The notes under the pieces are model-generated. The model saw nothing but the letters and a program-made list of their open reading frames with translations. It did no database searches and had not been told where the DNA came from. The translations under genes and the position numbers were made by a program. From positions 29,998-93,997 of IMG/VR virus record IMGVR_UViG_3300043464_001711: 64,000 nt of DNA; one strand, 5' to 3'. Shown piece by piece: positions 28,687-64,000 of the stretch (the first letter of the stretch is position 1; each line of letters opens with the position of its first letter). The stretch is from a virus.

Positions 28687-31488
28687 ATGGCATCAGACAA
28701 AATATTCGTATCACCAGGTGTGTTTACATCTGAAAAAGATTTAAGTTTTGTAGCACAACAAGTTGGTGTAACCACTTTAGGTGTTGTCGGAGAAACAACC
28801 AAAGGTCCTGCTTTTGAACCAATCTTCATTACAAATTATGAAGAGTTTACGGCAATATTTGGTGGTCTTAACCCTAAAAGATTTGGGGGTGAATCTAGAA
28901 AACCTAAATTTGAATTACCTTATATAGCGAAAAGTTATCTACAACAATCAAACCAAATGTTTGTAACAAGAATTCTTGGTTTAACTGGTTATGATGCTGG
29001 TGACGCTTGGTTACTAACGGCTAGTGCTAACTACGACCCATCAACAATTGGTGTTTCTGTAGCGGCTCAAGATTTTACTTGTAACTTTACAGGTGGGACC
29101 GAGTACTTTAATTTTGCAGGACCAGGAGCTACTGAGGCTGAAGTGTTATTTGATGCAGCATTATTCCCTAATGGGCCAACAAATACTACTGCAACCCCAG
29201 TACCAAATGATACTGTTACATACCCTGAAGGTATCTATTTTGAAAAAGTAGGAACTTCTTTCGTTGGTTATAGTGCTAGTATTGTACAAACAGGTGTTGT
29301 TGGTACAAGTGGTACGTCATCGGGTACTGTAATAACATATTCAGCATCTTCTTACTCAGAATATGAAGGAATGGTATTAGCTATGTTAAGGTCAAGAGGT
29401 GATTATGGTGACGTTAATAATGTTACAGATACTCTTACATATAGAACTTTACAGTCACAATCTGGACTTGTTATGAACCCATTAAATACTGGTACAAACT
29501 CTGAAGCTGATTTTGTATTATCTGCGACAAACAATACTACAAGTGCTATTACTAGATATGATGTTTCTTTAGATACAACTTCTAGAAATTATTTACCTAG
29601 AGTACTTGGTACAGATTTCTTTGATAGAGATGCTTTAGTATTTGTTGAAGAACTTTATCCTAATAAACTAAATGAATTAATTGAAAATGGTTATATTCTT
29701 GGATTAAACACAGGCTTAACCTATACAAATAATTTTGAAAATTACCAACAACAATGGCAAACACCTGAGACACCTTGGGTTGTTTCTGAATTACGTGGTA
29801 ACATTGTACAAAAATTATTTAAGTTTGTATCTATATCTGATGGTACTATGGCAAACAAAGAAATTAAAATTTCAATAGCTAACATTAAACCTGATACAAA
29901 AGAGTTTGACATTATAGTTAGAGATTTTTATGATAATGATACAAGACCTTCAATTATTGAGTCTTTCCGTAAAGTTGTTATGGACCCTTCTAGTAGTAAT
30001 TTTATTGGTAGAAGAATAGGTACAGCCGATGGTGAATTCTCTTTAAGAAGTAGATATATCATGATGGTAACTAACCCTGAATCCCCAATTGACGCATTCC
30101 CAGCGGGTTATGAAGGTTATATCGTTAGAGATTACCCAACAGGAGTTTTAGCACCACAATTAAATTTTAAAACTCAATATGATATTGTAAACGATAATAT
30201 CAGAAAAGTATATTTAGGTTTATCCGATACTGTTGGTATTGATCAAAACATGTTTAACTGGAAAGGTTATACAAATGGAGTTACACCAGCTCAGTGGACA
30301 GCTAGAACAGAAGGATATCACATGGATAGTGGAGCTACAGTAGCTGGTAATTTTGTTGTAGGATGTTGTCCATTTAGAACACTTTCTGGTCTTGAAGGTA
30401 CTTCTTACGAATCTATTCAATCCAGAAAATTCACATTAGCACCTTATTTAGGTTTTGATGGTTGGAACTCTTACAGAACAACTAGAACAAATGAAGATAG
30501 GTATAAAGTTGGTAGAGCCGGATTTGAAAATGGTTTAAATGAAGAAGAATTTAAAATTGTGGGTACTAATGAAGGAACTTCTGACTATTACGCATACTTA
30601 CAAGGTATCCGTACTTTTAGAAATCCTGAAGCGGTTAATATTAACGTATTAGCTACACCTGGTATTGATTATAGTGACAACTCAGAATTAGTTGGTATAA
30701 CAATTGACATGGTTGAAGAAGAAAGGGCAGATTCAGTTTATATCTTAACTTCACCTGAAGGTGTTACTTATAATAGTGTCACACAATTGACTAGTTTAGG
30801 ATTCTCAACGGTAGATGTACCTTCAGCTGACGACATGGTAGGTTTACTTGAAGCAGCCGACATTGATTCTAACTACACAGCCACTTACTGGCCATGGATT
30901 CAATCATTAGATAATGAAAACAATGTTAATGTTTGGTTACCACCTACATATGAAGTAGTACGTAACATCGCTTTAACTGATAACGTATCATTCCCATGGT
31001 TCGCTTCGGCTGGTTATACAAGAGGTCTTACTTCAGCTATCCAAGCTAGAGTTAAATTGACTGAATCAGATAGAGACACTCTTTATGAAGGAAGAATTAA
31101 TCCAATGGCTACATTCTCTGATCAAGGAGTTGTAATTTGGGGTAATAAAAATTTACAAATTAAAGATTCAGCTCTTGATAGATTGAACATTAGAAGATTG
31201 TTACTACAAACAAGAAAATTAATTTCAGCGGTAGCAGTAAGATTGTTATTCGAACAAAACGACCAAATTGTGAGAAACCAATTCTTATCACTTGTTAATC
31301 CAATCTTGGAAAACATTAAGAGAGAAAGAGGTTTGGCTGACTTTAGAGTTGTTCTTTCTAATGACCCTGAAGAAATCGATAGAAATGAATTAAGAGGTAA
31401 AATATTTATCAAACCTGTACCATCACTAGAATTCATAATCTTAGAATTCAATGTAACATCTACAGGAGCTTCTTTCGATAACCTATAA
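28687..31488 (+). CDS. Contractile tail sheath protein
   Basis: 933 residues, longer than T4 gp18 (659). The N-terminus KIFVSPGVFTSEKDLSFV and VGVTTLGVVGETTKGPAFEP, and the C-terminal domain (LLFEQNDQIVRNQFLSLVNPIL, RGLADFRVVLSND, LRGKIFIKPVPSLEFIILEFNV), are classic sheath features: the C-terminal domain forms the inner helical mesh and N- and C-terminal arms link neighbours. The extra length sits in the middle (about 140-270, STIGVSVAAQDFTCNFTGG...), probably an outward-facing decoration. The gene has its own late motif, a long A-rich leader and a terminator, consistent with very high late expression. Confidence 0.93.
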   Translation: MASDKIFVSPGVFTSEKDLSFVAQQVGVTTLGVVGETTKGPAFEPIFITNYEEFTAIFGGLNPKRFGGESRKPKFELPYIAKSYLQQSNQMFVTRILGLTGYDAGDAWLLTASANYDPSTIGVSVAAQDFTCNFTGGTEYFNFAGPGATEAEVLFDAALFPNGPTNTTATPVPNDTVTYPEGIYFEKVGTSFVGYSASIVQTGVVGTSGTSSGTVITYSASSYSEYEGMVLAMLRSRGDYGDVNNVTDTLTYRTLQSQSGLVMNPLNTGTNSEADFVLSATNNTTSAITRYDVSLDTTSRNYLPRVLGTDFFDRDALVFVEELYPNKLNELIENGYILGLNTGLTYTNNFENYQQQWQTPETPWVVSELRGNIVQKLFKFVSISDGTMANKEIKISIANIKPDTKEFDIIVRDFYDNDTRPSIIESFRKVVMDPSSSNFIGRRIGTADGEFSLRSRYIMMVTNPESPIDAFPAGYEGYIVRDYPTGVLAPQLNFKTQYDIVNDNIRKVYLGLSDTVGIDQNMFNWKGYTNGVTPAQWTARTEGYHMDSGATVAGNFVVGCCPFRTLSGLEGTSYESIQSRKFTLAPYLGFDGWNSYRTTRTNEDRYKVGRAGFENGLNEEEFKIVGTNEGTSDYYAYLQGIRTFRNPEAVNINVLATPGIDYSDNSELVGITIDMVEEERADSVYILTSPEGVTYNSVTQLTSLGFSTVDVPSADDMVGLLEAADIDSNYTATYWPWIQSLDNENNVNVWLPPTYEVVRNIALTDNVSFPWFASAGYTRGLTSAIQARVKLTESDRDTLYEGRINPMATFSDQGVVIWGNKNLQIKDSALDRLNIRRLLLQTRKLISAVAVRLLFEQNDQIVRNQFLSLVNPILENIKRERGLADFRVVLSNDPEEIDRNELRGKIFIKPVPSLEFIILEFNVTSTGASFDNL

Positions 31489-48718: not shown

Positions 48719-51700
48719 ATGCCTAATGATATAAACCCAAATGATTATAATATAGATTTCTTCTCTACCCAAAGTCTAGGTGTCACTACGGCAACTAATT
48801 TTAGGGATTATCTTTTAAATAAAAATCTAACAGAAATACCTGAAGAATTGGTTAATGGTGCTGCAGGTAATTTTAGTAGTAAATATGCAGAAAAGGGGGC
48901 AGAGAAGTCTATTAACTATACTCAGATATCTGACCCTGGTAATGTTGATGAGTGGATACTAGAGGGTAACTATAGTGTTAGTTCACATGAGGTGAGAGAT
49001 ATTGGCATGTTAAAAGGAAATCAATATGGACCACCTTCAATTCAAGCATATTCGTATAATAACCCTGAATTAATAGATGAAAGTACTGGGTTTTTACAAT
49101 ACCCAACTTCAACTGGAGGAGATGATTTTAAACAAGTTTTATTAAGTGACCAATTAATAGGTTTAGGACCTGGTGTTTCAATTAATTTTCCCTCAGATTT
49201 AAATGATATCGCAAAAGAAAGAAGAAAAGAAGAGGCTATTAATAGGGTAAAACTTAAAGCCGAAAATAATATTTTAGGTAAATTAAATTTAGACCCATTC
49301 GGTTTATTAGCTGGACAAGATTTAATTTTAAAAGATTATAAAATTACAACTAACCCAACCATTGGGGGTAAAATATTAGAGTTTTTTACTGATGCTGTTG
49401 ATATAAATATTCCTGTTAGTCCAATACCAACAAATGCTTTTGGTAAATATGGTGATACAGATGGTCCTGAGGCTTATTCAGATATAATGAAATCTACTGG
49501 TTCAGGTACAAAAGCTTTAATATACAACTCTGTTTCAGTTAATAAATACGGACCGACTTTAAGTGAACCTAAAGGTTTGTTAGCTAATGTTTTTGGTGCA
49601 GGTCAAGCTTCACAAAAAAACACGTATTTGACTCCACCTACTGAATTAATAAATAATGATTTATTTAATCTACCTATTGTAGATAAAATTAACAGAGCTG
49701 TAGGTAAAGCCGTTGACGCTATAACAAAAACACAAATAGAGAATGATAGTACAATTCTTCTACCAACTGAAAATCTCAATCCTTCGATAACATTAGATGG
49801 TATCCAACAAAATGCTCAAGCTGGTTTTGATACACTACCTAGTTCGGGTCTTATCGACACTTGGAATTTAACAGGTCCTACTAAAAAAATAGAAATACCT
49901 GGGGTTCCATTTTCAATACCTATACCTGATGACGGACCTGACGGACCTATTGGTACTAAAATACCTTTAGATGTAAGTGAAGATTTTTATCCTGGTAACG
50001 CCGCTAGTAACGGTTCTAAAAACAATGGTGTATCTTATGATAGAGGTATGTATTGGGGTAATCAAACTAGTAATCCATTTAGAAAAGGTATATTAAAATA
50101 CACACAAGACTTAATTAATAATTCTAGAAATACTAAAGATTATAAAGATAAGGCTAGATATATTGGGGCTTCTAATGATGCTTCTAATTTTGACAGTACA
50201 ACAGGGAGACATAAAAATTATTCAATGGGTAACACTGTTACTGACGCTGAAAATAAATTTTATTGTCGTTCTTGGTCAGTTAGAAACCCTTATAGAAAAG
50301 TTAGTGATTTAGTTAGACATGGTGGTGGTACTGAAGCAAATAGAAGAAGTTTAACAAGAGAAGATTTAAATTTAAGTGTTTTAGCCGATAATGGTTTTGT
50401 TAAAGTAGCTCCTTATTATAATGCTGGTATGGCTAAAGATATAATAGAGGGTAATATTAAATCTAATTTAGAGGGTGAAACATTAAACCTAGGTAACCCA
50501 TCTGTACAAAAATATATGTTGTCTATTGAAAATTTAGCTTGGCAAAATACAGAACATATATTACACGTACCACCTTGTGAGGTTGGACCTAATGGGGGTA
50601 GAATAATGTGGTTCCCACCATATAATATTAGTTTTACAGATAACTCAAGCGTTAACTGGGAAGCAACTTCTTTTATTGGTAGAGGTGAACCTGTTTATAC
50701 TTATAATAATACAGAAAGAACTGGTACTCTTACATTTACCTTAATAATTGACCATTCTATGGCAATGACAGAAATAAAAGAAAAGGGTGAATACGCTTTA
50801 TTTAGATATTTTGCTGGTTGTGAAGATCCTTTAGAAGTTTTTACTGCTATGGTACCAAAAGCCGTTAATGAGGAAGTAAAAGTACAACAACAAGTACAAG
50901 AAGACGTACCCAACCCAAATTCAACAGTAAAAGAAGAAGAATTTAAAGTTACAAAACCAACACCACCACCAACAGATAAAATACAATTTTATTTTAGAAA
51001 TGCTCGTAGTTTTGAAAAAGATACTATTGGTACTAATTTAGAAACAGAATTAGGACCTAATGCTAATGAACAACCACCTAATTATAAAGCAGAATATACT
51101 AGATTATGGCCTAATGGTTATTTAAGATCTAATGCGAATAATGTACCGGCTACTATAATTTCTGATGGTACAACAATACCTAACCCAGCTTATACTGCAA
51201 CAACAACAAGTCAATTAGATTCTTTAAATGAGGTAGCTTATCAAGATATGTCTAAGTTAATAGATTTTTTATTAACACCTGATGGTAAAAGATATAAAAT
51301 TAAAATTATTGGTAAAACAAGTGACGCTGGACCAACAACAGGGCAAAAAAGTAACCAAAAATTGGCACAAGCTAGGGCTAATTCTACAAAAAATTATTTA
51401 TTAAAAAATATTTTAGAAATTGAGGGTAACTTAACCGATCCAAAATTTAAAGCAACTAATTTAGGTTCAGAAAGTACATACCCAACAGAGTCGGAATGGA
51501 AAGACAGTACTCTAAGATGGGAAGTTTTAGCGGTAGGTGAAAACGATGCAAGTTTATCGGTATCTTACGATGAAGGTACAGGACAAAAGAAAGAATCGAA
51601 AGATGATAATAGAAAATTTGGTGATACGCAAACAAGTGTACCTGCGGCAATAAGAAACAGAACTACTTTAATTATATTAGAATATAATAAAGAAATTGAT

Positions 51701-53167
51701 GATTCAATTATAGGACCGGCACAACAAACAGACCCTAATGCTGGTGCAAGTTCTGAAGAAAACATAAAAACAATACCCGAAGTAACAGTAACACCTAAAA
51801 ATAATAATAAAAATCAAAATACTGAAACACAACCTTCAGCTGAAGAAAAACTACAAAAACAAAGACAAGAAGAATTAGCCAAAGCTTTAGCCGCTAAAGC
51901 TAGTAGATATATGGCTTGGGAATGTTCTTATTTCAATAAAATGCAACAAGAAGATTCTTTTATTTATGAATCTTTACAAGAAAAATTAAAATATTTTCAC
52001 CCAGCATTTCATTCAATGACACCTGAAGGATTTAATGCTAGATTAACATTTTTAAAACAATGCACTAGACAAGGACCTAATATTGCTGTAGGTGAACCTA
52101 GTAATTTGGCTTTTGGTAAACCACCAATTTGTGTGTTAAGAGTAGGTGATTTTTACCATACTAAAATAGTGATAGATTCTGTTAGTTTTTCTTTTGATCC
52201 ATTACAATGGGATTTAAATCCTGAAGGTATAGGTGTACAACCTATGTTATGTAATGTTGATTTAAGTTTCAAATTTATTGGTGGTTCTTCATTAGGTGGA
52301 CCTATAACACAACTACAAAATGCAGTATCATTTAACTTCTTTGCTAATACAGCTTTATATAACCCAAGAGTGATTTATCAGTCGGCTGGAGACTATGTAA
52401 CTAAGAGACGTGACCCATTAACAGATCAAATAACTGAAACTAAAGTTAGTACAACCAATACTAAAGGTAAGAATTTTGAATATGGAGCTTATATGACACC
52501 TACACAGTCATTTAAAATAGAATCAGCTAATAACTCAACGTCTGAACAATCAGGTAAAGATAGTATTAATTCTACTGGTGACCTATCACAAGCACAAACA
52601 GCTAAACAACAAAATGATCAAGGAATTGTTGGTAAAGACGCTACACCATCAGAAGAAAATAAAACTAGAATTGAAGACGCTGTTAGTGAAGACCAAAAAG
52701 TGAATGAGAATACAGATAATAAAGGTGTGGGTGATGCTAATAAGGGTGGTAATGAAAACAAAACAATAAAAGGTTTTGATAAGAAAAAAGGTGTATATAC
52801 GGTACAATACGCACAAGTATTAACATTTAAACCTTTTGGTGATAAGAAAACACAAAGTGATACTAGTTATGAAAAACTGAAAATACCAGTAGGAACAACA
52901 GTCACTATTTTGGATTTAACTGGTGATGGAGTAAAAGAAGTTGTTATATCACAAACCATAAACACAAAAACCAGCAAAACTTTCTACAATAAATTTAGTT
53001 TAAATTGTGGTGGTAATAATGGTCTAGATTTCTTATCAAACAGTTATAATGGTTATGAGGGACTTACTGATGGTGGTTATTATTCTAATAGTACATTAGC
53101 TAATGTATTAAGACCTATTTTTTGTAAAGGTAATGTCCCAAAAACAAAAAAAGAATTAACTACTTAA
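48719..53167 (+). CDS. Large baseplate hub/tube-initiation-like protein with inserted OmpA-like domain
   Basis: 1482 residues. Two separate tail-tube-like strand regions are seen: about 610-705 (HVPPCEVGPNGGRIMWFPPYNISF, then ERTGTLTFTLIID) and about 1070-1220 (NARLTFLKQCTRQ; ICVLRVGDFYHTKIVIDSVSFSFDP). These are typical of LysM-partnered hub/tube-end proteins. Between them lies a segment (about 835-990) like an OmpA peptidoglycan-binding domain (DFLLTPDGKRYKIKIIGKTSDAG, NQKLAQARANSTKNYLL, RNRTTLIILEYN). Low-complexity linkers flank it, suggesting insertion. The OmpA-like part could grip host peptidoglycan during ejection. The next gene encodes the LysM protein. Confidence 0.65.
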   Translation: MPNDINPNDYNIDFFSTQSLGVTTATNFRDYLLNKNLTEIPEELVNGAAGNFSSKYAEKGAEKSINYTQISDPGNVDEWILEGNYSVSSHEVRDIGMLKGNQYGPPSIQAYSYNNPELIDESTGFLQYPTSTGGDDFKQVLLSDQLIGLGPGVSINFPSDLNDIAKERRKEEAINRVKLKAENNILGKLNLDPFGLLAGQDLILKDYKITTNPTIGGKILEFFTDAVDINIPVSPIPTNAFGKYGDTDGPEAYSDIMKSTGSGTKALIYNSVSVNKYGPTLSEPKGLLANVFGAGQASQKNTYLTPPTELINNDLFNLPIVDKINRAVGKAVDAITKTQIENDSTILLPTENLNPSITLDGIQQNAQAGFDTLPSSGLIDTWNLTGPTKKIEIPGVPFSIPIPDDGPDGPIGTKIPLDVSEDFYPGNAASNGSKNNGVSYDRGMYWGNQTSNPFRKGILKYTQDLINNSRNTKDYKDKARYIGASNDASNFDSTTGRHKNYSMGNTVTDAENKFYCRSWSVRNPYRKVSDLVRHGGGTEANRRSLTREDLNLSVLADNGFVKVAPYYNAGMAKDIIEGNIKSNLEGETLNLGNPSVQKYMLSIENLAWQNTEHILHVPPCEVGPNGGRIMWFPPYNISFTDNSSVNWEATSFIGRGEPVYTYNNTERTGTLTFTLIIDHSMAMTEIKEKGEYALFRYFAGCEDPLEVFTAMVPKAVNEEVKVQQQVQEDVPNPNSTVKEEEFKVTKPTPPPTDKIQFYFRNARSFEKDTIGTNLETELGPNANEQPPNYKAEYTRLWPNGYLRSNANNVPATIISDGTTIPNPAYTATTTSQLDSLNEVAYQDMSKLIDFLLTPDGKRYKIKIIGKTSDAGPTTGQKSNQKLAQARANSTKNYLLKNILEIEGNLTDPKFKATNLGSESTYPTESEWKDSTLRWEVLAVGENDASLSVSYDEGTGQKKESKDDNRKFGDTQTSVPAAIRNRTTLIILEYNKEIDDSIIGPAQQTDPNAGASSEENIKTIPEVTVTPKNNNKNQNTETQPSAEEKLQKQRQEELAKALAAKASRYMAWECSYFNKMQQEDSFIYESLQEKLKYFHPAFHSMTPEGFNARLTFLKQCTRQGPNIAVGEPSNLAFGKPPICVLRVGDFYHTKIVIDSVSFSFDPLQWDLNPEGIGVQPMLCNVDLSFKFIGGSSLGGPITQLQNAVSFNFFANTALYNPRVIYQSAGDYVTKRRDPLTDQITETKVSTTNTKGKNFEYGAYMTPTQSFKIESANNSTSEQSGKDSINSTGDLSQAQTAKQQNDQGIVGKDATPSEENKTRIEDAVSEDQKVNENTDNKGVGDANKGGNENKTIKGFDKKKGVYTVQYAQVLTFKPFGDKKTQSDTSYEKLKIPVGTTVTILDLTGDGVKEVVISQTINTKTSKTFYNKFSLNCGGNNGLDFLSNSYNGYEGLTDGGYYSNSTLANVLRPIFCKGNVPKTKKELTT

Positions 53168-53494: not shown

Positions 53495-53508
53495 ATAATA
53501 AGTTTTTT

Positions 53509-56500
53509 ATGGCATTTAATCAAGGACCACAACCTGAAATAGTTTTAAATGAAAACGGGGTTAGGTATGTTGACCCAAATCCAACAGACGAGATAGTTAA
53601 TCACGAAGACCTAGTAATGTATGTTAAATTGGTTGCTAGAGCTAAAGGAAGGAGTATTTTAACATACGACCAAGCCACAGAACAACAAACTGTTATCGTT
53701 GAACAAAAAAATGTTCAATCAGAAACTAATTTCACATATCAAACAGGTAAAGAGTATTTAGATACTAGTTGGACTAATATAGGTGGTGGTAATATAAATT
53801 TTGGTGAAGATTTAGGTTCATTTGGTATTACTAATATCGGTATAGAATTTAAATCTAGTTTTATGCCACAAATAGTAATTGATTTTGTGGATGTACGTGG
53901 GGCGGCTTTATTTGAACAAGGACCTTGTTCACCTTACGCCATATTTTTTCATCTACCGTACCCTGTTTTTGAATTAACAGTTAAAGGTTATTATGGTAGA
54001 CCTGTAACATACACATTAGCTTTAATTAAATTTAATACTAAGTTCAATTCTGAAACAGGTAATTTTGAGTCAAAAGCCGAATTTGTTGGTTATACCTATG
54101 CTTTCTTAGCGGACATCCCAATGGGTTATGTTATGGCAGCAAATTTTATGACTAAACCACACGATGGTAAAACTATATTGGCTGAAAAATGGAAACAACT
54201 TATAGAAAAGAAAATACTAGATAATAGTTTTACAAATGAAAACGAACCTTTAAGTGTTTATGATTTAATTAAAAAATCAAAACAATTAGAACAAAGAACA
54301 CAAGAATTAAAAGGTTTGGCTTCTGTTAAACAGTTAGGGCAAATAAACAGCACTAAAAATCAATTAGACAGTTTAAGAAACATTGTTTCTGAATTCGAAG
54401 GTAAATTAAGAAGTTCAATATCAAAATCAATTAATAGTGGGTTTGATAAAAATAAAGTTTTTTTTATAAAATTACCAAACACCCCAGACACCCAACAAAG
54501 TGCTATTTTAACAGATGTTAAAGCTATTATAAATGAATATTTAGGTGATGGTAATAACTTAGGTGGTAAAATAGGTACTGAAGTAAGTACAGTGAATACC
54601 TATTATAAAACAAACTCAATTGGGGATTCACCTAATATAAATTTTACAAATATTACAAATAACACTAAAGGTTTTTTAAATCAGTCTGTAGGTCAAGAAG
54701 ACGGATTATTAAAATATTCAATAGATTTTGAAGAAAGTTTTTATAAACCATTAAACATTGCCTCTAAAAGTTTAAGTAAACAACAAATTACTAAAAAAGA
54801 TGAAGTTAAAAATACTTTAAATGCTGAGGTAATAAAAACTTTAGGATTTTTACCAACAATAAGTAACGTCTTTGCTATTATTTTAACTAACGTTGAAGTA
54901 TTTTTAGAACTACTATTAAGGACATCTAGAGATGCTGAAAAGTATCACGAAGAAAATGATGTAACCAGTGTTTTAGATGGTACTACACAAAATTTATTAG
55001 AATTAAGAAATAAACCAACAGTTGGAGCACAATTATCGGATGAAGCCTCCACCAATAAACCAATTAAAGTTTATCCTTGGCCAACTTATTATGTACAGAA
55101 AGCACCCGCTAGTGAAACTAACCCCGATAGTAACGTATCAAGTAATAGTTCAGAGGTAGGTACTAAAGAAGCTTATCCTGGTGAAAACCCAGAATTTACT
55201 TCTTGGCCTGAAGTTGTTTTTGTTGAAAACTTTATTAAGGCTTTAACTAGATTAAAAACAGAATTACAAGTTTTAGAATTAGAAAAAGAAAATTTACCGG
55301 GTTACGATAATTTTGCTCCAATAACAGCATATGAAACACATGCTTTTGGTAACGCCAACGCACCAAATAGATGGTATAGATTGCAACAAGATCCTAGTTT
55401 TGAAAACATAATTTATAAAATAATGGGTGAAAACGCTTTTATCCTAGGTGACTATACCATGATTAATACTTTAAGTTTGTGGAAATCACAATTAGGTTTT
55501 ACAAATGGTTGGGGTGTATCATCACTAACAAACTATCAGGGTTCCGGAAATGGTTATATACCAGCCTCAAGTAATGGATTTAATGTTGGGCCACAAAGAT
55601 TGGTTAATAACCCATTGGTTATATCAAATTTAAATCAACCAGAATTAAATAGATACCCAAATATATCTAATAAAGGTTTTAATTATCTATCTTATGGTAG
55701 TGATGCTAAAGATAGAGAAGTGGAATCTTTCAGAAAAAAAATAATCCCAACTACTAGAGCTAGAATGAAAAAATGGGGTTACATAGATGCTTTAAATCTA
55801 ATGACTACAATGAAATTAGATGGTGGTGAAACTACTGTATTAAGTTTTTTAAAAAGCAGTATGACTGTTGAAAATAAAGAAAAAATTAAAAAAGAAATTA
55901 AAGAAAGATTAAGTGAAAGACTTAAAACACAAACTTGGGATGAATGGAAAGTTTCTGCAACACAAGAAATAAGTGGAACCACTGCTTTAATAGATAACCA
56001 AAATAGTATTTGGAGTGGACATTTTGGTTATGTTAAAAAGAAACCAGTATTATCCTATAAAGGACCGATAATATTAAATAGTCAAATAGACGAAGGTAAA
56101 AATATAGAAATACACGCTAACCCACATTTAAATGAGGGTCAAGGGGCAATTTTAACAACAGCTGATGCTTTAGCTGGTAGAGAAATAGATTTTAGTTCTG
56201 AATCTTTAACTGATAATATTAAAAAGAAATATACAGAATATTTTGCTGATGTCTCAACAAACGAAAGTAAAATAAATGAAGATGTGGCCACACCTAATTC
56301 TCTCGCTTATACCACATTAAAATATAGACCAAAACCCTCTACGATAAAATCTAAAACATCTTATGATAATTATAGTTTAGAAAGATCTAATATTAATTTA
56401 ATTAGGGATAAAAATACTAACCTACTATCTTTAGGTGAAAATTTTTATCCAAACTTTTTCCACAAATATGAAGATAATGAGGGATTGGAAAGTAGTAAAA

Positions 56501-58590
56501 TTATATTAGATTTATCTTCTTCTAGAAGATACATTTCTCAAAAAAATGGTAATACTACCGAGAAATGGGCTAGATTTATGGGAGCACCAGAGACAGATGA
56601 TTTAGGTTTTGCTAATTCAATTATTAACACACCATTATGGACACTTAATTATCCACTATACAAAAATGCTTGGAATTGGTCAAAAGCCGGTGGTAATTCC
56701 TATATAGGGTTAGATGAAACAATTAAAACCTCAGATCTAGATTTACCAGAGTCTTACAACAACAATATTTATAAAAATACAAAAAGAAATTGGGGTACAT
56801 GGTGGGGTATTAATCAGTGGGGTGTTGATAACAATACAGATTATTATAAACCTCTAGCTTATATAGCTGTAATGTCTTTTGGCTTTAGAAATCAAAATAC
56901 TAATTATAGGTCCGGTCATTTTTTACCTTGGGATGGTAAGGGTGATTACGATTTATCTTCTTTTTCTAATTTTACACATACAGCTATAGTAGCTAATTTA
57001 CCTAAATCTTATGTTTTATTAATAGGTGCTCTTTTATGGAGAATGAAAGAATCTGGTTTATTAAGATGGGACGATATAAAACCAAAAAGAAACACTATAG
57101 ACGCTAATAACAAGGGTTGGAATACTTTTGATAAGTCTTATTTAGGTGCTGAAGGTGCAGGTAATGTTGGTATTGATGATTTAAATGATCCTGTTTGGTT
57201 CTTCCATACGTCGACTTCAAGACCTTTATACGGTGGTGGTTCTGTTTATGCAAATAATGATGGCTTTGATATAAAACAATCACCATTTACTGACGGTAAA
57301 GGAAAATACCAAAGAGAATGGCTTGGTAGAACGAAGGGTATTGATAATTGGACAAATGGCGGTGGTAGTATAAATAGTTCATTATCTTTAGATGCACCAG
57401 TTACCATCACTAGTTGGACAAAAGGTCAGTTTGTATTTGGTGATGAAAAAAGTGAGTTTAAAAATAGAGCAAGAGGATTTTATGATTTGTGTAGACCCGA
57501 CCAGATTCCTTTTTTAATTTCTAGTGGTGATGATTTTAAAACACCTAATACTTTAGCCATAGTAGAAAAAACTGAAAAAGATAAAAACCCACCATCTAAT
57601 GTGAATACCTCCCTATCTAGACTACCTAATTTAAAATTTGATAATGGTACAGGTTCCACCTCTTACATTAAAACAACTTACCCTGTATTAAAAGAAGAGT
57701 GTAAAGAATTAATGTTTATACCTAAATCACTAAAAGAACAATTTATTCAAGCTTTTGAAAATTGGGCAACAAACGATACAAAATGGTTGGCAACAATTGA
57801 CCCATTAAATTGGACGGATGATGGTAAACTAGAAAATTTTACCACTACCACAAATGGAAATGTAAACACCGCTTACAAAGTAAGTGGTTATAGAGGTTTC
57901 TTAAACCAAGAAACTTATAGTAAATCTAGAAATTTCGGTAAAGTCATCAATGACGAAAAAAAAGATTTCGGATTTTCTAAATTTGATTTTGAGGATAATA
58001 ATAATATTGGATCTAATCAAAAAAAGACTAAAAAAACTAATAAAAATAATAACAGCAGCGAAGAAAATATACCTAGTGGGGGTGGTTCTGAAGGAATCGA
58101 ACAAGCTGGTGGTATAGGTAATTCTTTTTGTTTTGTTGCAGGAACAAAAATTAAATTAGTTGACGGGTCTAGTGTGAATATTGAAGATTTAAATATAGAT
58201 AAAAAATTATTAACATATAACTTAGACACCAAAGAATTTGAAGAAGGTGATATTGGTGAAATACAGGTTGAATACAAAGAAAATTTGGTAACTTATTATT
58301 TTGATAATGGTAATAAAATAAATTGTACTGAAGATCACCCTATTTGGGTAATCGGAAAAGGTTGGTCTTCTTATAGAGCTTATAACTTTACTGAAGATAA
58401 CACACACAATATAAATACAAAAGAAATTATAATAGGTGATGAATGTTTATATTATTCTGATGGGAAGTTCAACAAAGTAAAATTGAATAAAATTATCAGA
58501 AAAAATAATAGACCAACAAGAGTTTGGAGAATTAAAAACCTTAATGTTAATAAAAACTTTATTGCTGGTAATGTTTTAGTCTATAATTAA
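53509..58590 (+). CDS. Giant baseplate-region protein ending in a Hint (intein-like) domain (1693 residues)
   Basis: The N-terminal 210 residues form a strand-rich domain (VYELTVKGYYGRP-like, FELTVKGYYGRPVTYTLALIKFN) found at the start of large virion proteins. A long helical and mixed body follows; I recognise no enzyme in it. After a basic, Asn/Ser- and Gly-rich linker (about 1500-1540), residues 1541-1693 are a Hint domain: Cys1541 in CFVAGTKIKLVDG, CTEDHPIW (T-x-x-H block B) and the end NFIAGNVLVYN. The protein stops exactly at the terminal Asn with no C-extein and with Tyr in place of the usual penultimate His. The Hint domain can be expected to cut or modify the linker. The next gene starts 3 nt later. 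Confidence 0.75.
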   Translation: MAFNQGPQPEIVLNENGVRYVDPNPTDEIVNHEDLVMYVKLVARAKGRSILTYDQATEQQTVIVEQKNVQSETNFTYQTGKEYLDTSWTNIGGGNINFGEDLGSFGITNIGIEFKSSFMPQIVIDFVDVRGAALFEQGPCSPYAIFFHLPYPVFELTVKGYYGRPVTYTLALIKFNTKFNSETGNFESKAEFVGYTYAFLADIPMGYVMAANFMTKPHDGKTILAEKWKQLIEKKILDNSFTNENEPLSVYDLIKKSKQLEQRTQELKGLASVKQLGQINSTKNQLDSLRNIVSEFEGKLRSSISKSINSGFDKNKVFFIKLPNTPDTQQSAILTDVKAIINEYLGDGNNLGGKIGTEVSTVNTYYKTNSIGDSPNINFTNITNNTKGFLNQSVGQEDGLLKYSIDFEESFYKPLNIASKSLSKQQITKKDEVKNTLNAEVIKTLGFLPTISNVFAIILTNVEVFLELLLRTSRDAEKYHEENDVTSVLDGTTQNLLELRNKPTVGAQLSDEASTNKPIKVYPWPTYYVQKAPASETNPDSNVSSNSSEVGTKEAYPGENPEFTSWPEVVFVENFIKALTRLKTELQVLELEKENLPGYDNFAPITAYETHAFGNANAPNRWYRLQQDPSFENIIYKIMGENAFILGDYTMINTLSLWKSQLGFTNGWGVSSLTNYQGSGNGYIPASSNGFNVGPQRLVNNPLVISNLNQPELNRYPNISNKGFNYLSYGSDAKDREVESFRKKIIPTTRARMKKWGYIDALNLMTTMKLDGGETTVLSFLKSSMTVENKEKIKKEIKERLSERLKTQTWDEWKVSATQEISGTTALIDNQNSIWSGHFGYVKKKPVLSYKGPIILNSQIDEGKNIEIHANPHLNEGQGAILTTADALAGREIDFSSESLTDNIKKKYTEYFADVSTNESKINEDVATPNSLAYTTLKYRPKPSTIKSKTSYDNYSLERSNINLIRDKNTNLLSLGENFYPNFFHKYEDNEGLESSKIILDLSSSRRYISQKNGNTTEKWARFMGAPETDDLGFANSIINTPLWTLNYPLYKNAWNWSKAGGNSYIGLDETIKTSDLDLPESYNNNIYKNTKRNWGTWWGINQWGVDNNTDYYKPLAYIAVMSFGFRNQNTNYRSGHFLPWDGKGDYDLSSFSNFTHTAIVANLPKSYVLLIGALLWRMKESGLLRWDDIKPKRNTIDANNKGWNTFDKSYLGAEGAGNVGIDDLNDPVWFFHTSTSRPLYGGGSVYANNDGFDIKQSPFTDGKGKYQREWLGRTKGIDNWTNGGGSINSSLSLDAPVTITSWTKGQFVFGDEKSEFKNRARGFYDLCRPDQIPFLISSGDDFKTPNTLAIVEKTEKDKNPPSNVNTSLSRLPNLKFDNGTGSTSYIKTTYPVLKEECKELMFIPKSLKEQFIQAFENWATNDTKWLATIDPLNWTDDGKLENFTTTTNGNVNTAYKVSGYRGFLNQETYSKSRNFGKVINDEKKDFGFSKFDFEDNNNIGSNQKKTKKTNKNNNSSEENIPSGGGSEGIEQAGGIGNSFCFVAGTKIKLVDGSSVNIEDLNIDKKLLTYNLDTKEFEEGDIGEIQVEYKENLVTYYFDNGNKINCTEDHPIWVIGKGWSSYRAYNFTEDNTHNINTKEIIIGDECLYYSDGKFNKVKLNKIIRKNNRPTRVWRIKNLNVNKNFIAGNVLVYN
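58129..58590 (+). other. C-terminal Hint domain of the baseplate protein
   Basis: Codons 1541-1693 of the preceding gene. It shows Cys1, T-x-x-H and the terminal N-F-x-A-x-x-V-L-V-x-N block. It has no space for a homing endonuclease (153 residues), so it is a mini-intein or bacterial intein-like domain rather than a mobile intein. Confidence 0.8.
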
Positions 58591-58593
58591 AAT

Positions 58594-60543
58594 ATGTCTG
58601 AAAGAATAATAGGGTTAAAGAAGGAAGAATCAGGCAATCAAAATAAAGTGCTTTATGATGAATTGTTTGTTAAAGATTCTGGATATAGGTTAGTCTCTTC
58701 TACACCTAAAGTTTTTTCTGCAATACATCCTGATGATTTTGGTGAAAATTTTTATATTTCTGAGGAAGAATTAGATTTTTACATTGAAGGTTTTATTTCC
58801 GCTGTTTCAGAAAATGTTGACGATATATCACAGAATATAGTAAAAGAAGAATCTAATAATAATGATTTAGAATCTGGTTTAGATGATTTAGATACTAAAC
58901 TATCCTTATATAGGTCATTTAGATCATTGTATGATAAATGGATTGCTAGTTCTAATATAGACGGTGAAACATCTAGTGGATATTTCTTCAATAATTATGG
59001 TCAAAGTGAAGTTAATGGTGAGGATGATAAAAGATTATTATTTGAACACTTTTCTTTTGTAAATAGAACAAATTCTAATATAGGTAATAGAGCAGTTATA
59101 GACTTCTCATACCTATCAAATTTAGCTAACTCTAAAAATGGACAAGGACCAACACAATCTTTATACGAATCAATAACTAATCTACTAACTGAAAATAAAT
59201 TTGAGTTTTTCGCAATGCCTAGTTTAATAGGTTATTCAGATTCAGATTCAAAAGATTTGATAGATATATTTAGAACGATAGATGGACCAATAAATAGAAT
59301 ACCAGCTAAACCTGGTTTTATATGTATGTTTATTGGTGGTAATTCTAGAACATTAGATATCCCACAATCTTATTGTGGTATTAATCGTGTTGGTTTTGAT
59401 TTTGTAAACGACTCATTTGATATAGACGATCCAACCACATATCCACAAGATTTTACTGATAATGGGGGTATTACCGCATTTAAAGTTAAATACGGACAAC
59501 AAACCCAAAATCATTTTAAAAGTATAGAATTAGACCAATCGGAATTCAAAGAAACCCAAGAATCTTTAATAGTAATAGATTCTTTAACAAACCCCTCTAG
59601 TGGTTCAGATCCAGTAAAAATTGGTAAGGGTAATAATGTCTACGATGTTAATTTAACAAGGGGTTATTCTTGTACCGTCACAATGTTGGGTGATATGCAA
59701 ATACAGCCAATGATGATCTTTAAATTAGAGAATGTCCCTATGTTTAGGGGAACATATTTAATAACATCTGTTTCACATAATATTAAACCACACAATGTAG
59801 AAACAACATTTAAGGGTGTGAGACAACCAATAGTAACAGTACCTATTGTAACTGAGGCATTAAGTTTATTGGATTTAGCTTTAGCGGAAGTAGTACAAGG
59901 AGACCAAGCTTTACAAAGTAATAATGGTACTATATCATCACAATCATTATTTGGTGATGTTGGTAGTAGTGATGTAACACCACCTGAAATAGACTTAACT
60001 GTTTATGGTGATAATTCAGATAAAACATGTCCTAAAGACCCATTAATTTCTGATGGTGGTGTGGGTGATGCTTACATCAAAGGTAAATTATATAAAATTA
60101 GATTGTGTAAAGTTAAAGGTACCGATGGTAACACAGCTAAAGTTAACGTTGAAATGGCTTTAAATTTAGCTAACATGATTAGAAAGGCACAACAAGATGG
60201 TGTTAAATTAACCCTCGGTAGTAACTTTAGAACAATGCAAAGCCAAGTAAATACCGCTAGAAGTAATGGATGTTACAAATCTGGTAATTTTAATAGATCT
60301 GATTGTAATGTGGCTACCGCACAACCAGGTTATTCTAATCACCAAAGTGGTTCAGCTATAGATTTTGGTTGTAACGGTAAAACCATATGTTACAGTAATA
60401 GTTCAGCTTGGTGTGAAAAAAATGGTTCACAATTAAGGCCAAATGAATATCCTTGTTTTGAATGGATGGTTAGAAACGCTAATAGTTATGGTTTTTATAA
60501 TTATAAAAAAGAAGCTTGGCACTGGTCAATAAATGGTGCGTAA
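58594..60543 (+). CDS. Baseplate hub paralogue 1 with VanY-type D,D-carboxypeptidase domain
   Basis: 649 residues. Residues 1-430 are a shared scaffold found in the next two genes, starting ERIIGLKKEESGNQNKVLYD and ending MFRGTYLITSVSHNIKPHN, the G-x-Y-x-I-x-x-V-x-H pattern of gp27/gpD-like hub proteins. The C-terminal 170 residues contain TLGSNFRT, SNHQSGSAIDFGC and EAWHWS, the zinc/His-x6-Asp...His-x-His-like set of peptidase M15 (VanY/LAS) enzymes, which cut peptide stems of peptidoglycan. Four or more Cys around this domain suggest disulphides. It probably pierces the cell wall during infection. Confidence 0.82.
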   Translation: MSERIIGLKKEESGNQNKVLYDELFVKDSGYRLVSSTPKVFSAIHPDDFGENFYISEEELDFYIEGFISAVSENVDDISQNIVKEESNNNDLESGLDDLDTKLSLYRSFRSLYDKWIASSNIDGETSSGYFFNNYGQSEVNGEDDKRLLFEHFSFVNRTNSNIGNRAVIDFSYLSNLANSKNGQGPTQSLYESITNLLTENKFEFFAMPSLIGYSDSDSKDLIDIFRTIDGPINRIPAKPGFICMFIGGNSRTLDIPQSYCGINRVGFDFVNDSFDIDDPTTYPQDFTDNGGITAFKVKYGQQTQNHFKSIELDQSEFKETQESLIVIDSLTNPSSGSDPVKIGKGNNVYDVNLTRGYSCTVTMLGDMQIQPMMIFKLENVPMFRGTYLITSVSHNIKPHNVETTFKGVRQPIVTVPIVTEALSLLDLALAEVVQGDQALQSNNGTISSQSLFGDVGSSDVTPPEIDLTVYGDNSDKTCPKDPLISDGGVGDAYIKGKLYKIRLCKVKGTDGNTAKVNVEMALNLANMIRKAQQDGVKLTLGSNFRTMQSQVNTARSNGCYKSGNFNRSDCNVATAQPGYSNHQSGSAIDFGCNGKTICYSNSSAWCEKNGSQLRPNEYPCFEWMVRNANSYGFYNYKKEAWHWSINGA

Positions 60544-60546
60544 TAT

Positions 60547-62466
60547 ATGTCTAACGAAAGAATAATAGGATTAAAGAAAGAAGAATCGGGCAATCAAAAT
60601 AAAGTGCTTTATGATGAATTGTTTGTTAAAGATTCGGGCTACAGACTAGTGTCATCAAGTCCAAAAGTTTTTTCTGCAATACATCCTGATGATTTCGGTG
60701 ATAATTTTTACATCTCAGAAGAAGAATTAGATTTTTATATTGATGGGTTTATTTCTGCTATATCAGATAACGTCGATGATGTTATAGATAATTTAGTAAA
60801 AGAAGAAGCAAATCAAATTAATGATTTAGAATCTGGTTTAGATGATTTAGATACTAAACTATCCTTATATAGATCTTTTAAATCTTTAAATGATAAATGG
60901 ATAATCAGTTCAAATTATAATGAAGGTAGTAAAACTAGATATTTTTATGATAACAATAAATTTGTTAGTGGTGATACAAAATTATTATACGAATATTTTT
61001 CTTTTGTAAATAGATGCGGAACCTCAATTGGTAGTAAGGCTGTTATAGATTTTTCATATCTTTCTAATTTAGGTAGTGTACAAAATGGCCAAGGGCCAAC
61101 AAAATCTCTTTATGAATCACTAACTGGTCTTTTAACTGAAAATAATTTTATATTCCACCCTTTACCAGCATTTGTTACTTATTCAGATAAAGATTTAACA
61201 CCTTTAACCGATATGTTTAGAACAATAGACGGTCCATTAAATAATTTATCGGCTGAACCTAATTTTGTTTGTATGTTTATTGGTGGTAGTTCTAGAGCTT
61301 TAGATATACCAACCTCATATTGTGGTTTAGGGGGGACTAATTTTCAATATACTAACGACTCTTTCGATGTTAACGACCCAACAACTTACCCAGAAGATTT
61401 TAGGTCAGGTGGTGCGATAAATGCGTTTAAAGTTAGGTATGGACAAGAAGCACAAAATCATTTTAGTAGAATAGAGCTGGACCAAGCAGAATTTAAAGAA
61501 ACACAAGATTCTTTATTGGTAATAGACGCTTTAGTTAATCCGTCTAGTGGTTCAAACCCAACAAAAATCGGTAAAGGAAATAATATCTATGATGTTAATT
61601 TGACTAGGTCTTATACCTGTACAGTAGAAACTTTAGGTAATATGCAAATACAACCAATGATGTTCTTTAAATTGGAAAATGTACCAATGTTTAGAGGCAC
61701 TTATTTAATTACTGATGTTAGTCATACAATAAAACCACATAATGTTATAACTTCTTTCAAGGGAGTTAGACAACCAATAATGACTGTACCAATCGTAACT
61801 GAGGCATTAAGTTTATTAGATTTATCTTTAGTTGAAGTAGTAGAAAATAATAACAACCAAAATACATTAGGTTCATCACAAACTAGTGATTTGGGTAATG
61901 ATAGTTTTGCCTCCATAAATTTAGTACCATTAGAATCTATTGGTGATAATGTAAAAGATGCTTTAATTTATTTTATAAAAACAGTGAAGTTACCACCTTA
62001 TAAAGCTATAGGTATTATAGCGGCTATAATGGGTGAATCTGGTACAAAATTAAATCCAAAAGCGTTAAATAGTAGTTCAGGTGCTTTTGGTATTGCTCAG
62101 TGGTTAGGTAATAGGTTACAAGGTTTAAAACAACTAACTAATTTTGAATCATTATCAACCCAATTACAGTATTTATGGAGTGAATTAGATCCTAATAGTA
62201 AAAATGTTGATACAATAGCTAAACCTTATATATCTAAAGCCACCTCTAAAGAAGAAACATTAGCGGCAATGGCTTTATTTGAAAGATGGGAATACCCAGT
62301 TAAATTATTTAAAAGTAATGGTAACTCATATAAAAACGTATACCCGATATTAGTAGCTGAAGTAATAAATAAAAGTACACCAGATAAATCTTTAAGGGAT
62401 AGAATAGGTTATTTAGTTAGAGTTGAAGAAGTTTATAACAGTTTAAAATCCCAAGGATTAGTTTAA
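60547..62466 (+). CDS. Baseplate hub paralogue 2 with phage tail lysozyme domain
   Basis: 639 residues. Same scaffold as the previous gene for about 440 residues; the first 75 residues are nearly identical by eye. The C-terminal module (about 465-610) reads YKAIGIIAAIMGESGTKLNPKALN, SSGAFGIAQWLGNRLQGL, LQYLWSELD, the pattern of the phage tail lysozyme family (PF18013, lysozyme-like fold, catalytic Glu in MGESG). It cleaves peptidoglycan glycan. It starts 3 nt after paralogue 1. The linker between scaffold and enzyme is Asn/Ser-rich. Confidence 0.82.
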   Translation: MSNERIIGLKKEESGNQNKVLYDELFVKDSGYRLVSSSPKVFSAIHPDDFGDNFYISEEELDFYIDGFISAISDNVDDVIDNLVKEEANQINDLESGLDDLDTKLSLYRSFKSLNDKWIISSNYNEGSKTRYFYDNNKFVSGDTKLLYEYFSFVNRCGTSIGSKAVIDFSYLSNLGSVQNGQGPTKSLYESLTGLLTENNFIFHPLPAFVTYSDKDLTPLTDMFRTIDGPLNNLSAEPNFVCMFIGGSSRALDIPTSYCGLGGTNFQYTNDSFDVNDPTTYPEDFRSGGAINAFKVRYGQEAQNHFSRIELDQAEFKETQDSLLVIDALVNPSSGSNPTKIGKGNNIYDVNLTRSYTCTVETLGNMQIQPMMFFKLENVPMFRGTYLITDVSHTIKPHNVITSFKGVRQPIMTVPIVTEALSLLDLSLVEVVENNNNQNTLGSSQTSDLGNDSFASINLVPLESIGDNVKDALIYFIKTVKLPPYKAIGIIAAIMGESGTKLNPKALNSSSGAFGIAQWLGNRLQGLKQLTNFESLSTQLQYLWSELDPNSKNVDTIAKPYISKATSKEETLAAMALFERWEYPVKLFKSNGNSYKNVYPILVAEVINKSTPDKSLRDRIGYLVRVEEVYNSLKSQGLV

Positions 62467-62477
62467 TATTAAATAAA

Positions 62478-64000
62478 ATGTCTAACGAAAGAATAATAGG
62501 GTTAAAGAAAGAAGAGAGTGGAAACCAAAATAAGGTTTTATATGATGAATTATTCGTTAAAGATTCTGGGTACAGACTTGTTTCTTCCACACCTAAAGTT
62601 TTTTCTGCTATTCACCCCGATGATTTTGGTGAAAATTTTTATATTTCTGAGGAAGAGTTAGATTTTTACATTGAAGGCTTTATTCAGGCTGTTTCAGATA
62701 ATGTGGGTGATGTTATAGATAATTTAGTAAAAGAAGATTCAGCTAAACTTGATGATATAGAATCTGGTTTAGATGATTTGGATATTAAACTATCTCTTTA
62801 TAGATCATTTAAATCACTTTATGATAAATGGATTTCTAATTCAATATCACCTAATGGTGTAACAAATGGTTATTTTTATAATAATTATGGTGGTGATGAT
62901 GATAGAATGTTATATGAACATTTTAAATTTGTTAATAGAGCAAATCAAAATATAGGTGACAAAGCTGTTATAGATTTTTCTTATTTATCAAATTTAGCTA
63001 ACACACAAAACGGACAAGGACCGACACAATCACTTTATGAATCTTTGACCGGTTTGTTAAGTGAAAACAAATTTGATTTTTGGCCTTTACCAGCAAACAT
63101 ATCATTAACACAAGATAGTTTAAGTAATGAAGATGTTAAAGATATATTTAGGACACTAACTCTTGTTACTGATTTAAAACCAGGACCAACCTTTGTTTGT
63201 GTTTATATTGGAGGCAGTTCAAGAACCTTAGCTGATTTACAAAGTAGTGGTGATGCTTGTGTTAATAATAATGGTTCTTTTTATTATACCGACGATTCTT
63301 TTGATATAACAAAAGTTGAAGATTGGCCGGCTGAATATGCTGCTAGTAATGAAGGTGTTGTTGTTTTTAAAGTTAGATATGGACAAGAAGCACAAAACCA
63401 CTTTGATTCTATTGAGTTAGACCAAACAGAATTTAAGGAAACACAAGAATCTTTACAGATTATAGATGCTTTAACTAACCCTAATAGTGGTTCTAATCCA
63501 TCAAAAACAGGTAAAGGTAATAATATGTATGACGTTTACTTAACTAGGTCTTATAATTGTACCGTTTCAGGTTTGGGTAATATGTCTATACAACCATTAA
63601 TGCATTTTAAATTAGAAAATGTACCTATGTTTAGGGGTACTTATTTAATTACAGGTGTTAAACACACAATAACACCACACAACATAAAAACTGAATTCAC
63701 AGGTATGAGACAACCTAAAATTACAATTCCAGTTGTGACTGAAGCGTTAAGTTTAATTGATTTAGCTTTAGCTGAAACAATTACACAAGGTACCGTACAA
63801 AATGATAGTTCGTCAGACGTTTCAAATTTTAGTAGTAGTGATATAGAAAACTTTAGTGGTGTAGACACTAATTCTAAAGGTTGTGAAATAGCTAGAAAAT
63901 TAAGTAATGATTTAAGTATTTCATTAGAACAGGCTTCTGGTATAGTCGGTAATTTAGTAGCTGAAAGTGGATTAATACCTAATAGAATACAAGGTGGGGG
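62478..64000 (+). CDS. Baseplate hub paralogue 3, tail-lysozyme type (partial at right edge)
   Basis: The ATG at 62478 opens a frame that runs off the window (507 codons). The scaffold repeats for about 440 residues, starting ERIIGLKKEESGNQNKVLYD as in the other two. The C-terminal module starts at about 466 with CEIARKLSNDLSISLEQASGIVGNLVAESGLIPN, again the helix plus Glu pattern of the tail lysozyme family, but clearly different in sequence from paralogue 2. It starts 11 nt after paralogue 2. More copies may follow outside the window. Confidence 0.8.
   Translation, partial: MSNERIIGLKKEESGNQNKVLYDELFVKDSGYRLVSSTPKVFSAIHPDDFGENFYISEEELDFYIEGFIQAVSDNVGDVIDNLVKEDSAKLDDIESGLDDLDIKLSLYRSFKSLYDKWISNSISPNGVTNGYFYNNYGGDDDRMLYEHFKFVNRANQNIGDKAVIDFSYLSNLANTQNGQGPTQSLYESLTGLLSENKFDFWPLPANISLTQDSLSNEDVKDIFRTLTLVTDLKPGPTFVCVYIGGSSRTLADLQSSGDACVNNNGSFYYTDDSFDITKVEDWPAEYAASNEGVVVFKVRYGQEAQNHFDSIELDQTEFKETQESLQIIDALTNPNSGSNPSKTGKGNNMYDVYLTRSYNCTVSGLGNMSIQPLMHFKLENVPMFRGTYLITGVKHTITPHNIKTEFTGMRQPKITIPVVTEALSLIDLALAETITQGTVQNDSSSDVSNFSSSDIENFSGVDTNSKGCEIARKLSNDLSISLEQASGIVGNLVAESGLIPNRIQGG

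What the first reader, a model, noticed from the sequence alone, without database searches (positions are those of the whole stretch)
58594..64000. Three tandem hub paralogues with the same scaffold and different wall-cutting modules
Three consecutive genes share a nearly identical start and a gp27/gpD-like scaffold of about 440 residues, then end in a VanY-type peptidase, a tail lysozyme, and a second, diverged tail lysozyme. Contractile-tail hubs are normally homotrimers with one enzyme. Three different paralogues could form a heterotrimer carrying peptidase and glycosidase activities together, or be alternative tips for different hosts.
Basis: partly seen in the sequence, partly recalled or inferred. 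Interest (0 to 1): 0.8.

Follow-up and report, generated by a model that had tools for sequence, protein, structure and literature searches.

The report
Triplicated phage tail hub, divided enzymes
In a small group of uncultivated contractile-tailed phages, the hub of the tail tip has been cut loose from its giant parent protein and copied into two or three sister genes, each usually carrying a different cell-wall-cutting enzyme, which suggests one tip built from unlike subunits instead of three identical ones.

Summary
Three adjacent genes (58594-60543, 60547-62466, 62478 to the contig end) share a ~435-residue scaffold and end in VanY, Phage_lysozyme2 and a second lysozyme2. An overlapping contig completes gene 3 (829 aa), shows an added SGNH-like domain and shows that the array stops at three. 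Four 163-226 kb contigs carry the same three-gene array; two other lineages have two copies. In 97 of 98 more distant loci the scaffold is a single ORF, fused near the C-terminus of a 1.4-2.6 kaa baseplate protein, so splitting plus duplication is the derived, rare state.

Trees split the scaffold. The first ~115 residues group by genome (85-98% identical between sisters); residues 195-410 group by position. Codon divergence shows the N-terminal identity is kept by protein-level selection and is not fresh copying. A fused relative (L033) carries lysozyme2 and VanY on one chain. Together this favours all copies docking in the same tip of one particle (a mixed hub trimer) over alternative tips; stoichiometry is untested.

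A Hint (intein-like) domain ends the split-off baseplate protein exactly where relatives run on into the hub, only in this clade. New variant of a known kind.

The parts
53509..58590 (+). Split-off baseplate protein (1693 aa); its homologues in fused relatives continue into the hub scaffold as one 1.4-2.65 kaa chain
   Evidence: ORF; fused homologues in L026, L028, L029, L033 and L046-L143
58129..58587 (+). Hint (intein-like) domain at the C-terminus of that protein: Cys1, TEDH block, terminal VYN with nothing after it
   Evidence: Pfam AXH 6e-11 and Intein_splicing 2e-3 in the window; Intein_splicing 1.4e-6 and Hint 2.9e-5 in the L004 homologue; own HMM finds it only in lineages W, X, Y
58594..60543 (+). 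Hub 1: scaffold + VanY (M15) peptidase, 649 aa
58594..58938 (+). Hub 1 homogenised N-terminal segment (residues 1-115)
59176..59823 (+). Hub 1 position-specific part of the scaffold (residues 195-410), gp27-like part
60139..60528 (+). VanY domain (residues 516-645); metal-ligand motifs SNHQSGSAIDF and EAWHW present
   Evidence: Pfam PF02557 5.7e-15; motifs read from the sequence
60547..62466 (+). Hub 2: scaffold + Phage_lysozyme2, 639 aa
60547..60897 (+). Hub 2 homogenised N-terminal segment
61948..62298 (+). Phage_lysozyme2 domain of hub 2 (residues 468-584)
   Evidence: Pfam PF18013 4.8e-12
62478..64000 (+). Hub 3, cut by the contig end; complete in L008:1743-4232 (829 aa)
62478..62828 (+). 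Hub 3 homogenised N-terminal segment
63897..64000 (+). Start of Phage_lysozyme2 in hub 3; whole domain and SGNH-like domain lie beyond the window in L008
53180..53494 (+). Baseplate wedge-like small protein directly upstream, same neighbourhood in relatives
   Evidence: phrog_7145 1.5e-4
28687..31488 (+). Tail sheath protein: shows that the tail is contractile
   Evidence: phrog_23 5.9e-57

Best explanation
The three genes encode the hub of a contractile tail. The hub scaffold, normally one domain near the C-terminal end of a giant baseplate protein present as identical chains, has been split off and triplicated. Each copy keeps the same N-terminal docking segment, so any of them can fill each of the (presumably three) sites left by the old covalent link to the baseplate protein. 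The middle of the scaffold has become position-specific, and each C-terminus carries a different wall-cutting module: VanY peptidase; lysozyme; lysozyme plus SGNH-like esterase. Most likely the three are made together and assemble in one tip, probably as a mixed trimer, so that one particle delivers peptide-bond, glycan-strand and possibly ester cleavage at the injection site. Shown: the array, the domains, the fused single-copy state of relatives, N-terminal homogenisation, position-specific middles, and the same enzymes on one chain in a fused relative. Inferred: presence of all three in one virion, trimer stoichiometry, enzyme activities.
For: Orthologous three-gene array in the same order in four 163-226 kb contigs, identical to each other across the stretches compared, whose hubs are 58-68% identical to the window's by tblastn; no other copies in those records. 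Two-copy arrays in L010 and L016. N-terminal residues 1-115: sisters 85-98% identical within a genome, 47-63% between genomes; tree groups by genome and the position clades tried are rejected (AU p <= 1.2e-7). Residues 195-410: tree groups by position (copy-3 type of five lineages 100/99.8) and genome clades are rejected (p <= 2.6e-4). Same-amino-acid codons in the N-terminal segment are only 62-85% identical between sisters, close to the middle part, so the identity is held at protein level. L033 carries lysozyme2 and VanY after one scaffold (41-48% and 41-43% identical to the window-clade modules), and its next gene carries the domain found on hub 2 of the L004 lineage. L049 has lysozyme2 + SGNH after one scaffold, as hub 3 does. 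Some hub copies have lost or lack an enzyme but are kept as bare scaffolds (L016 copy 1; L015 last copy), as expected if the copies have a structural role. V. [quoted passage not shown]
Against: No proteomics, structure or isolate. The hub fold match is weak over the full length and the multimer could not be modelled. Lineages with two copies exclude an obligatory 1:1:1 rule across the clade. N-terminal homogenisation would also occur if each paralogue formed its own homotrimer on the same docking site. The SGNH-like domain of hub 3 has GSS where the classical motif has GDS, so its activity is doubtful.
Confidence: 0.55

Rival explanations
1. Alternative tips: each particle (or each phage in a population) uses one paralogue as a homotrimer, giving different wall specificities for different hosts.
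For: Modules differ between copies and swap between lineages: position 2 is lysozyme2 in the window and an unrelated domain in L004; position 1 is VanY, Amidase_2 or nothing. A shared docking segment would fit this too.
Against: No switch: only short inverted arms of ~75% complementarity, no template/variable repeat pattern. Copies lie 3-11 bases apart, as in co-translated genes. Copy-3 scaffold lineage is preserved in all five lineages. The same enzymes sit on one chain in L033.
Confidence: 0.15
2. Separate homotrimers or rings of each paralogue within one tail tip (stacked or concentric), not a mixed trimer.
For: Position-specific middles could reflect different places in the tip; copy number varies from two to three.
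Against: The same N-terminal segment and one ancestral fusion point suggest one kind of docking site.
Confidence: 0.2
3. Random mixing: paralogues fill the hub sites stochastically, so particles differ in their enzyme set; the duplications are a neutral or mildly useful way to hold several enzymes.
For: Shared docking segment; two- and three-copy lineages; bare-scaffold copies.
Against: Conserved order and position-specific middles over long divergence suggest defined roles.
Confidence: 0.1

Closest known systems
T4 gp27-gp5 hub and the gp27/gpD/Mu gp44/VgrG hub fold
   Same: Foldseek PDB hits of the scaffold model are almost all this kind of hub (7aef, PVC, 3d37, P1, pyocin R2, VgrG1, Mu, T4 gp27); position in the baseplate operon of a contractile tail.
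   Different: T4 has one gp27 gene as a homotrimer with the lysozyme on gp5 (general knowledge); here there are three paralogues, each with its own enzyme.
Anabaena phage A-1(L) hub gp15 (PMC10966104)
   Same: A contractile-tail hub that carries several wall enzymes (lysozyme, endoglucanase, peptidase).
   Different: A-1(L) puts all on one chain of a homotrimer; here they are divided over three sister chains.
V. cholerae VgrG-1/VgrG-2/VgrG-3 (PMC3166118)
   Same: Paralogous hub/spike proteins with a common core and different C-terminal extensions, which interact, with a homo- or heterotrimer proposed.
   Different: Type VI secretion system, VgrG genes at separate loci, one nearly without extension; no tandem array, no fusion to a giant baseplate protein.
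Fused hub family of uncultivated large myophages (L026-L143 here)
   Same: Same scaffold (roughly 24-41% identical to hub 1), same neighbours in the nearer members, overlapping set of enzyme modules.
   Different: Single scaffold copy near the C-terminus of a 1.4-2.65 kaa baseplate protein; no Hint domain.

Membership tests
gp27/gpD/VgrG-type hub | Hub fold with tube-like beta domains | tested here: inconclusive
   PDB fold hits are almost all hubs (probability above 0.9 for most of the top 20), but E >= 2e-3 and alignments of about 60-300 columns on a model with mean pLDDT 61; the best-modelled part is residues 355-410. Sequence profile search of PDB finds no hub.
gp27/gpD/VgrG-type hub | Lies in the baseplate gene cluster of a contractile tail | tested here: met
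   Tail sheath, tube, T4_baseplate-family hub protein, tape measure, wedge-like gene upstream.
gp27/gpD/VgrG-type hub | Forms a trimer | not testable with these tools
   Only single chains could be folded; inferred from the family.
Mixed (heterotrimeric) hub, VgrG-like | Several paralogues with a shared core and different extensions in one genome | tested here: met
Mixed (heterotrimeric) hub, VgrG-like | Unlike chains in one trimer | not testable with these tools
   Needs co-purification, native mass spectrometry or cryo-EM.
VanY / M15 peptidase (hub 1) | Domain above the curated cut-off, with metal-ligand motifs | tested here: met
   55.7 bits vs cut-off 25; SNHQSGSAIDF and EAWHW in the sequence.
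Phage_lysozyme2 (hubs 2 and 3) | Domain above the curated cut-off | tested here: met
   46.7 bits for hub 2 and 73.7 for complete hub 3, cut-off 28.2.
SGNH/GDSL hydrolase (end of hub 3) | GDS nucleophile block, GxND block, DxxH block | tested here: inconclusive
   Pfam GDSL_2 only E 0.067, below cut-off; homologous to the L049 tail, which has an intact IIGDSLS; hub 3 has GSSS, GTND and a histidine block.
Intein | Splicing: complete Hint with a C-extein whose first residue is C, S or T | tested here: not met
   The protein ends at the terminal Asn in the window, and two residues after HN in L004: there is no C-extein. So a Hint domain, not a splicing intein.
Switchable (alternative) tail tips | Invertible repeats, or a retroelement with template and variable repeats | tested here: not met
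   Only short inverted arms of ~75% complementarity in 53500-64000; no recombinase or reverse transcriptase among the window genes that were scanned (not every gene was scanned).

The most novel reading that the evidence does not exclude
A phage tail hub that is an ordered heterotrimer of three dedicated paralogues, one carrying a peptidase, one a lysozyme and one a lysozyme plus esterase. Its N-termini are coupled to three identical copies of the baseplate protein, and the baseplate protein's C-terminal Hint domain cleaves itself off, perhaps passing its thioester to the hub N-terminus and so remaking the peptide bond that the gene fission broke.
Probability: 0.12. Interest if true: 0.85.

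Novelty: new variant of a known kind. Interest (0 to 1): 0.62.

Why it matters
Contractile-tail hubs are textbook homotrimers. A natural clade that has moved from one fused hub to two or three sister hubs, with the fused form still present in large numbers of relatives, lets one test how a homomeric machine becomes heteromeric: which surfaces stay identical, which specialise, and how several enzymes are divided among subunits. It would also show how one particle can bring several wall enzymes to the injection site.

Tried and rejected
Alternative-tip switching: no invertible repeats or template/variable repeats. Recent gene conversion as the sole cause of identical starts: codon identity in the N-terminal segment is not clearly raised against the middle part, so older conversion plus selection. 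Further copies elsewhere: none in the 94 kb record or in related records. Isolate relatives: four tblastn searches of 50,697 phage records found none. First AlphaFold run with 8 close relatives failed (pLDDT 31). Sequence profile against PDB gave only chance hits. Species genomes gave only four distant hits on contigs assigned to mixed taxa, so no host call. Papers on heterotrimeric phage hubs: those opened refer to wedges, tube-end rings or accessory proteins, not the hub. Hint domain as a splicing intein: rejected, no C-extein. Sites that separate the copy-3 type from the others were listed but could not be placed on a trimer interface.

Full report
WHAT IS THERE. The window is bases 29998-93997 of a 93,997-base virus record and ends with it. 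Three ORFs lie head to tail: hub 1 58594-60543 (649 aa), hub 2 60547-62466 (639 aa), hub 3 62478 to the end (507 aa seen). They follow a 1693-aa gene (53509-58590) with gaps of 3, 3 and 11 bases. Hub 1 ends in VanY (E 5.7e-15), hub 2 in Phage_lysozyme2 (E 4.8e-12), and hub 3 begins a Phage_lysozyme2 at the very end. Contig L008 overlaps the window by 3265 bases with 3 mismatches and gives the full hub 3: 829 aa, Phage_lysozyme2 E 2.2e-20, then ~200 residues with SGNH-like blocks (GSSSVGTL, GIGTND, DTSTKAH). The GDSL match is below cut-off (E 0.067), but the tail is homologous to that of L049, which has lysozyme2 plus an intact IIGDSLS. After hub 3 come unrelated genes, so the array has three members; a profile of the whole family finds exactly three in the record.

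CONTEXT. The tail is contractile: sheath (phrog_23, 5.9e-57), tube, T4_baseplate-family hub protein, tape measure, wedge-like protein. Neighbours to the right in L008 read as single-strand binding, recombination, helicase and ribonucleotide reductase type genes of a T4-like replication set (my reading of the ORFs, not tested).

RELATIVES. I call the window lineage W. Lineage X (L004-L007, four contigs of 163-226 kb, identical to each other over the 21 kb held) has the same three-gene array: VanY; an unrelated domain; lysozyme2 + SGNH-like; and no other copies. Lineage Y (L010) has two copies, Amidase_2 and lysozyme2. Lineage Z (L016) has two: a bare scaffold of 463 aa, then a separate 313-aa ORF resembling the end of a 'baseplate hub subunit and tail lysozyme' family (phrog_1259, 4.1e-8), then a scaffold with a phrog_90 endolysin-like tail. 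Lineage V (L015) holds only the end of the array; its last copy is a scaffold whose enzyme tail is missing. Widening the search gave a large family: at least 567 stretches in viral contigs. In 97 of 98 more distant loci (L046-L143) there is one scaffold ORF, and where the gene is complete the scaffold sits near the C-terminus of a 1.4-2.6 kaa protein; the remaining locus (L062) is one copy split over two ORFs. The same holds for the nearer fused relatives L026, L028, L029 and L033. Sixteen records in all, up to 321 kb, were searched whole: three copies in W and X, two in Y and Z, one in every fused record tested. So the fused single copy is the common state and the split, multiplied hub is confined to W, X, Y, Z and (as far as its fragment shows) V.

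THE SPLIT LEAVES A MARK. The 1693-aa protein corresponds to the N-terminal part of the fused proteins. Where the fused chains run on into the hub, the W protein ends in a Hint domain (residues 1541-1693; window 58129-58587). The same is seen in X and, degenerate at its end, in Y; it is absent from Z and from all fused loci. The domain has Cys1, a TEDH block and a terminal Asn, with no residue after it in W and two after HN in X. It cannot splice, but could cleave itself off (inference from the Hint family; not tested).

CONCERTED START, DIVERGED MIDDLE. Between sisters of one genome, scaffold residues 1-115 are 85-98% identical; between genomes 47-63%. In residues 195-410 it is the other way round: same-position copies of W and X are 73-76% identical, sisters 57-70%. 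Trees agree. On residues 1-115 the rows group as W123, X123, Y13, Z13, and every position clade tried is rejected (AU p <= 1.2e-7). On residues 195-410 the copy-3 type of W, X, V, Y and Z forms one clade (100/99.8), W1+X1 and W2+X2 pair, and every genome clade is rejected (p <= 2.6e-4). One duplication therefore precedes the W/X/Y/Z split and a second precedes the W/X split, while the start has been homogenised separately in each lineage. Same-amino-acid codons in the start are only 62-85% identical between sisters, much as in the middle, so the identity is old and held by selection on the protein. My reading: the start docks each copy onto one common partner, most simply the baseplate protein to which it was once joined. 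The partner is an inference.

SAME ENZYMES, DIFFERENT PACKING. L033, a fused single-hub relative, carries lysozyme2 (41-48% identical to the copy-3 tails) and VanY (43% identical to hub 1) one after the other on one chain; its next gene holds the domain found on hub 2 of X (49%). L049 has lysozyme2 + SGNH on one chain as hub 3 does. L026 and L028 have an amidase or a peptidase-like tail on the hub plus a next gene of several modules (endolysin-like by PHROGs; esterase and peptidase parts are my motif reading). Modules that are joined in relatives are thus divided among paralogues here, which argues that they act in the same particle.

FOLD. AlphaFold with 71 relatives gave mean pLDDT 61, pTM 0.53, best in residues 355-410. 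The top PDB matches are almost all hubs or spikes of contractile systems, T4 gp27, VgrG1, pyocin R2, Mu, P1, PVC and AlgoCIS among them, with E 2e-3 to 0.2 and mostly short alignments. Viral predicted structures give two strong near-full-length relatives, one named 'Lysozyme' (E 1.2e-25). The gp27-like label is therefore supported but partial.

MECHANISM. Most likely the three hubs are made together, share one docking segment and fill the hub positions of one tip as a mixed trimer, so one injection brings peptidase, lysozyme and perhaps esterase activity. Not shown: virion content, stoichiometry, catalysis. Two-copy lineages mean that a strict 1:1:1 cannot be general. Alternative tips are less likely: no inversion or template/variable repeats were found. 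Homotrimers at separate places, or random mixing, remain open.

KNOWN GROUND. Multi-enzyme hubs exist: A-1(L) gp15 has lysozyme, endoglucanase and peptidase domains in one homotrimeric chain (PMC10966104). [quoted passage not shown] I found no paper describing tandem hub paralogues in a phage, within a library limited to open-licence papers. I class it as a new variant of a known kind.

Noticed in passing
58129-58587: Hint (intein-like) domain at the C-terminus of the baseplate protein, present only in lineages where the hub is split off and located at the former fusion point. Possibly a self-cleaving end.
   Followed up: partly
48719-53167: 1482-aa baseplate-region protein with an OmpA-type domain at residues 835-897 (E 9.7e-7), i.e. 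a possible peptidoglycan-binding module inside a tail protein.
   Followed up: no
L016:16112-17212: Replicative-helicase-like ORF that appears to be interrupted by an intein after GVGK (AQPISSKILTPSGWVTMGDINVGDEI...); seen by eye.
   Followed up: no
18330-21314: 994-aa protein with five matches to phrog_25468 (unknown function), i.e. a repeat protein near the tail genes.
   Followed up: no
35480-36367 and 40215-41750: GIY-YIG homing-endonuclease-like gene and a second homing endonuclease gene (phrog_3339, 2.7e-113) inside the tail gene cluster.
   Followed up: no
L046-L143: Very large family (at least 567 stretches in viral contigs) of fused giant baseplate-hub proteins; two members tried had no match in 50,697 phage records by tblastn.
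   Followed up: partly
L004:13259-13951 and L033:11626-13149: Unnamed domain (DALHSFxxRxSDxFGGYMF) that is the C-terminus of hub 2 in lineage X and part of a separate gene in L033; no confident Pfam or PHROG match for the L004 copy.
   Followed up: partly
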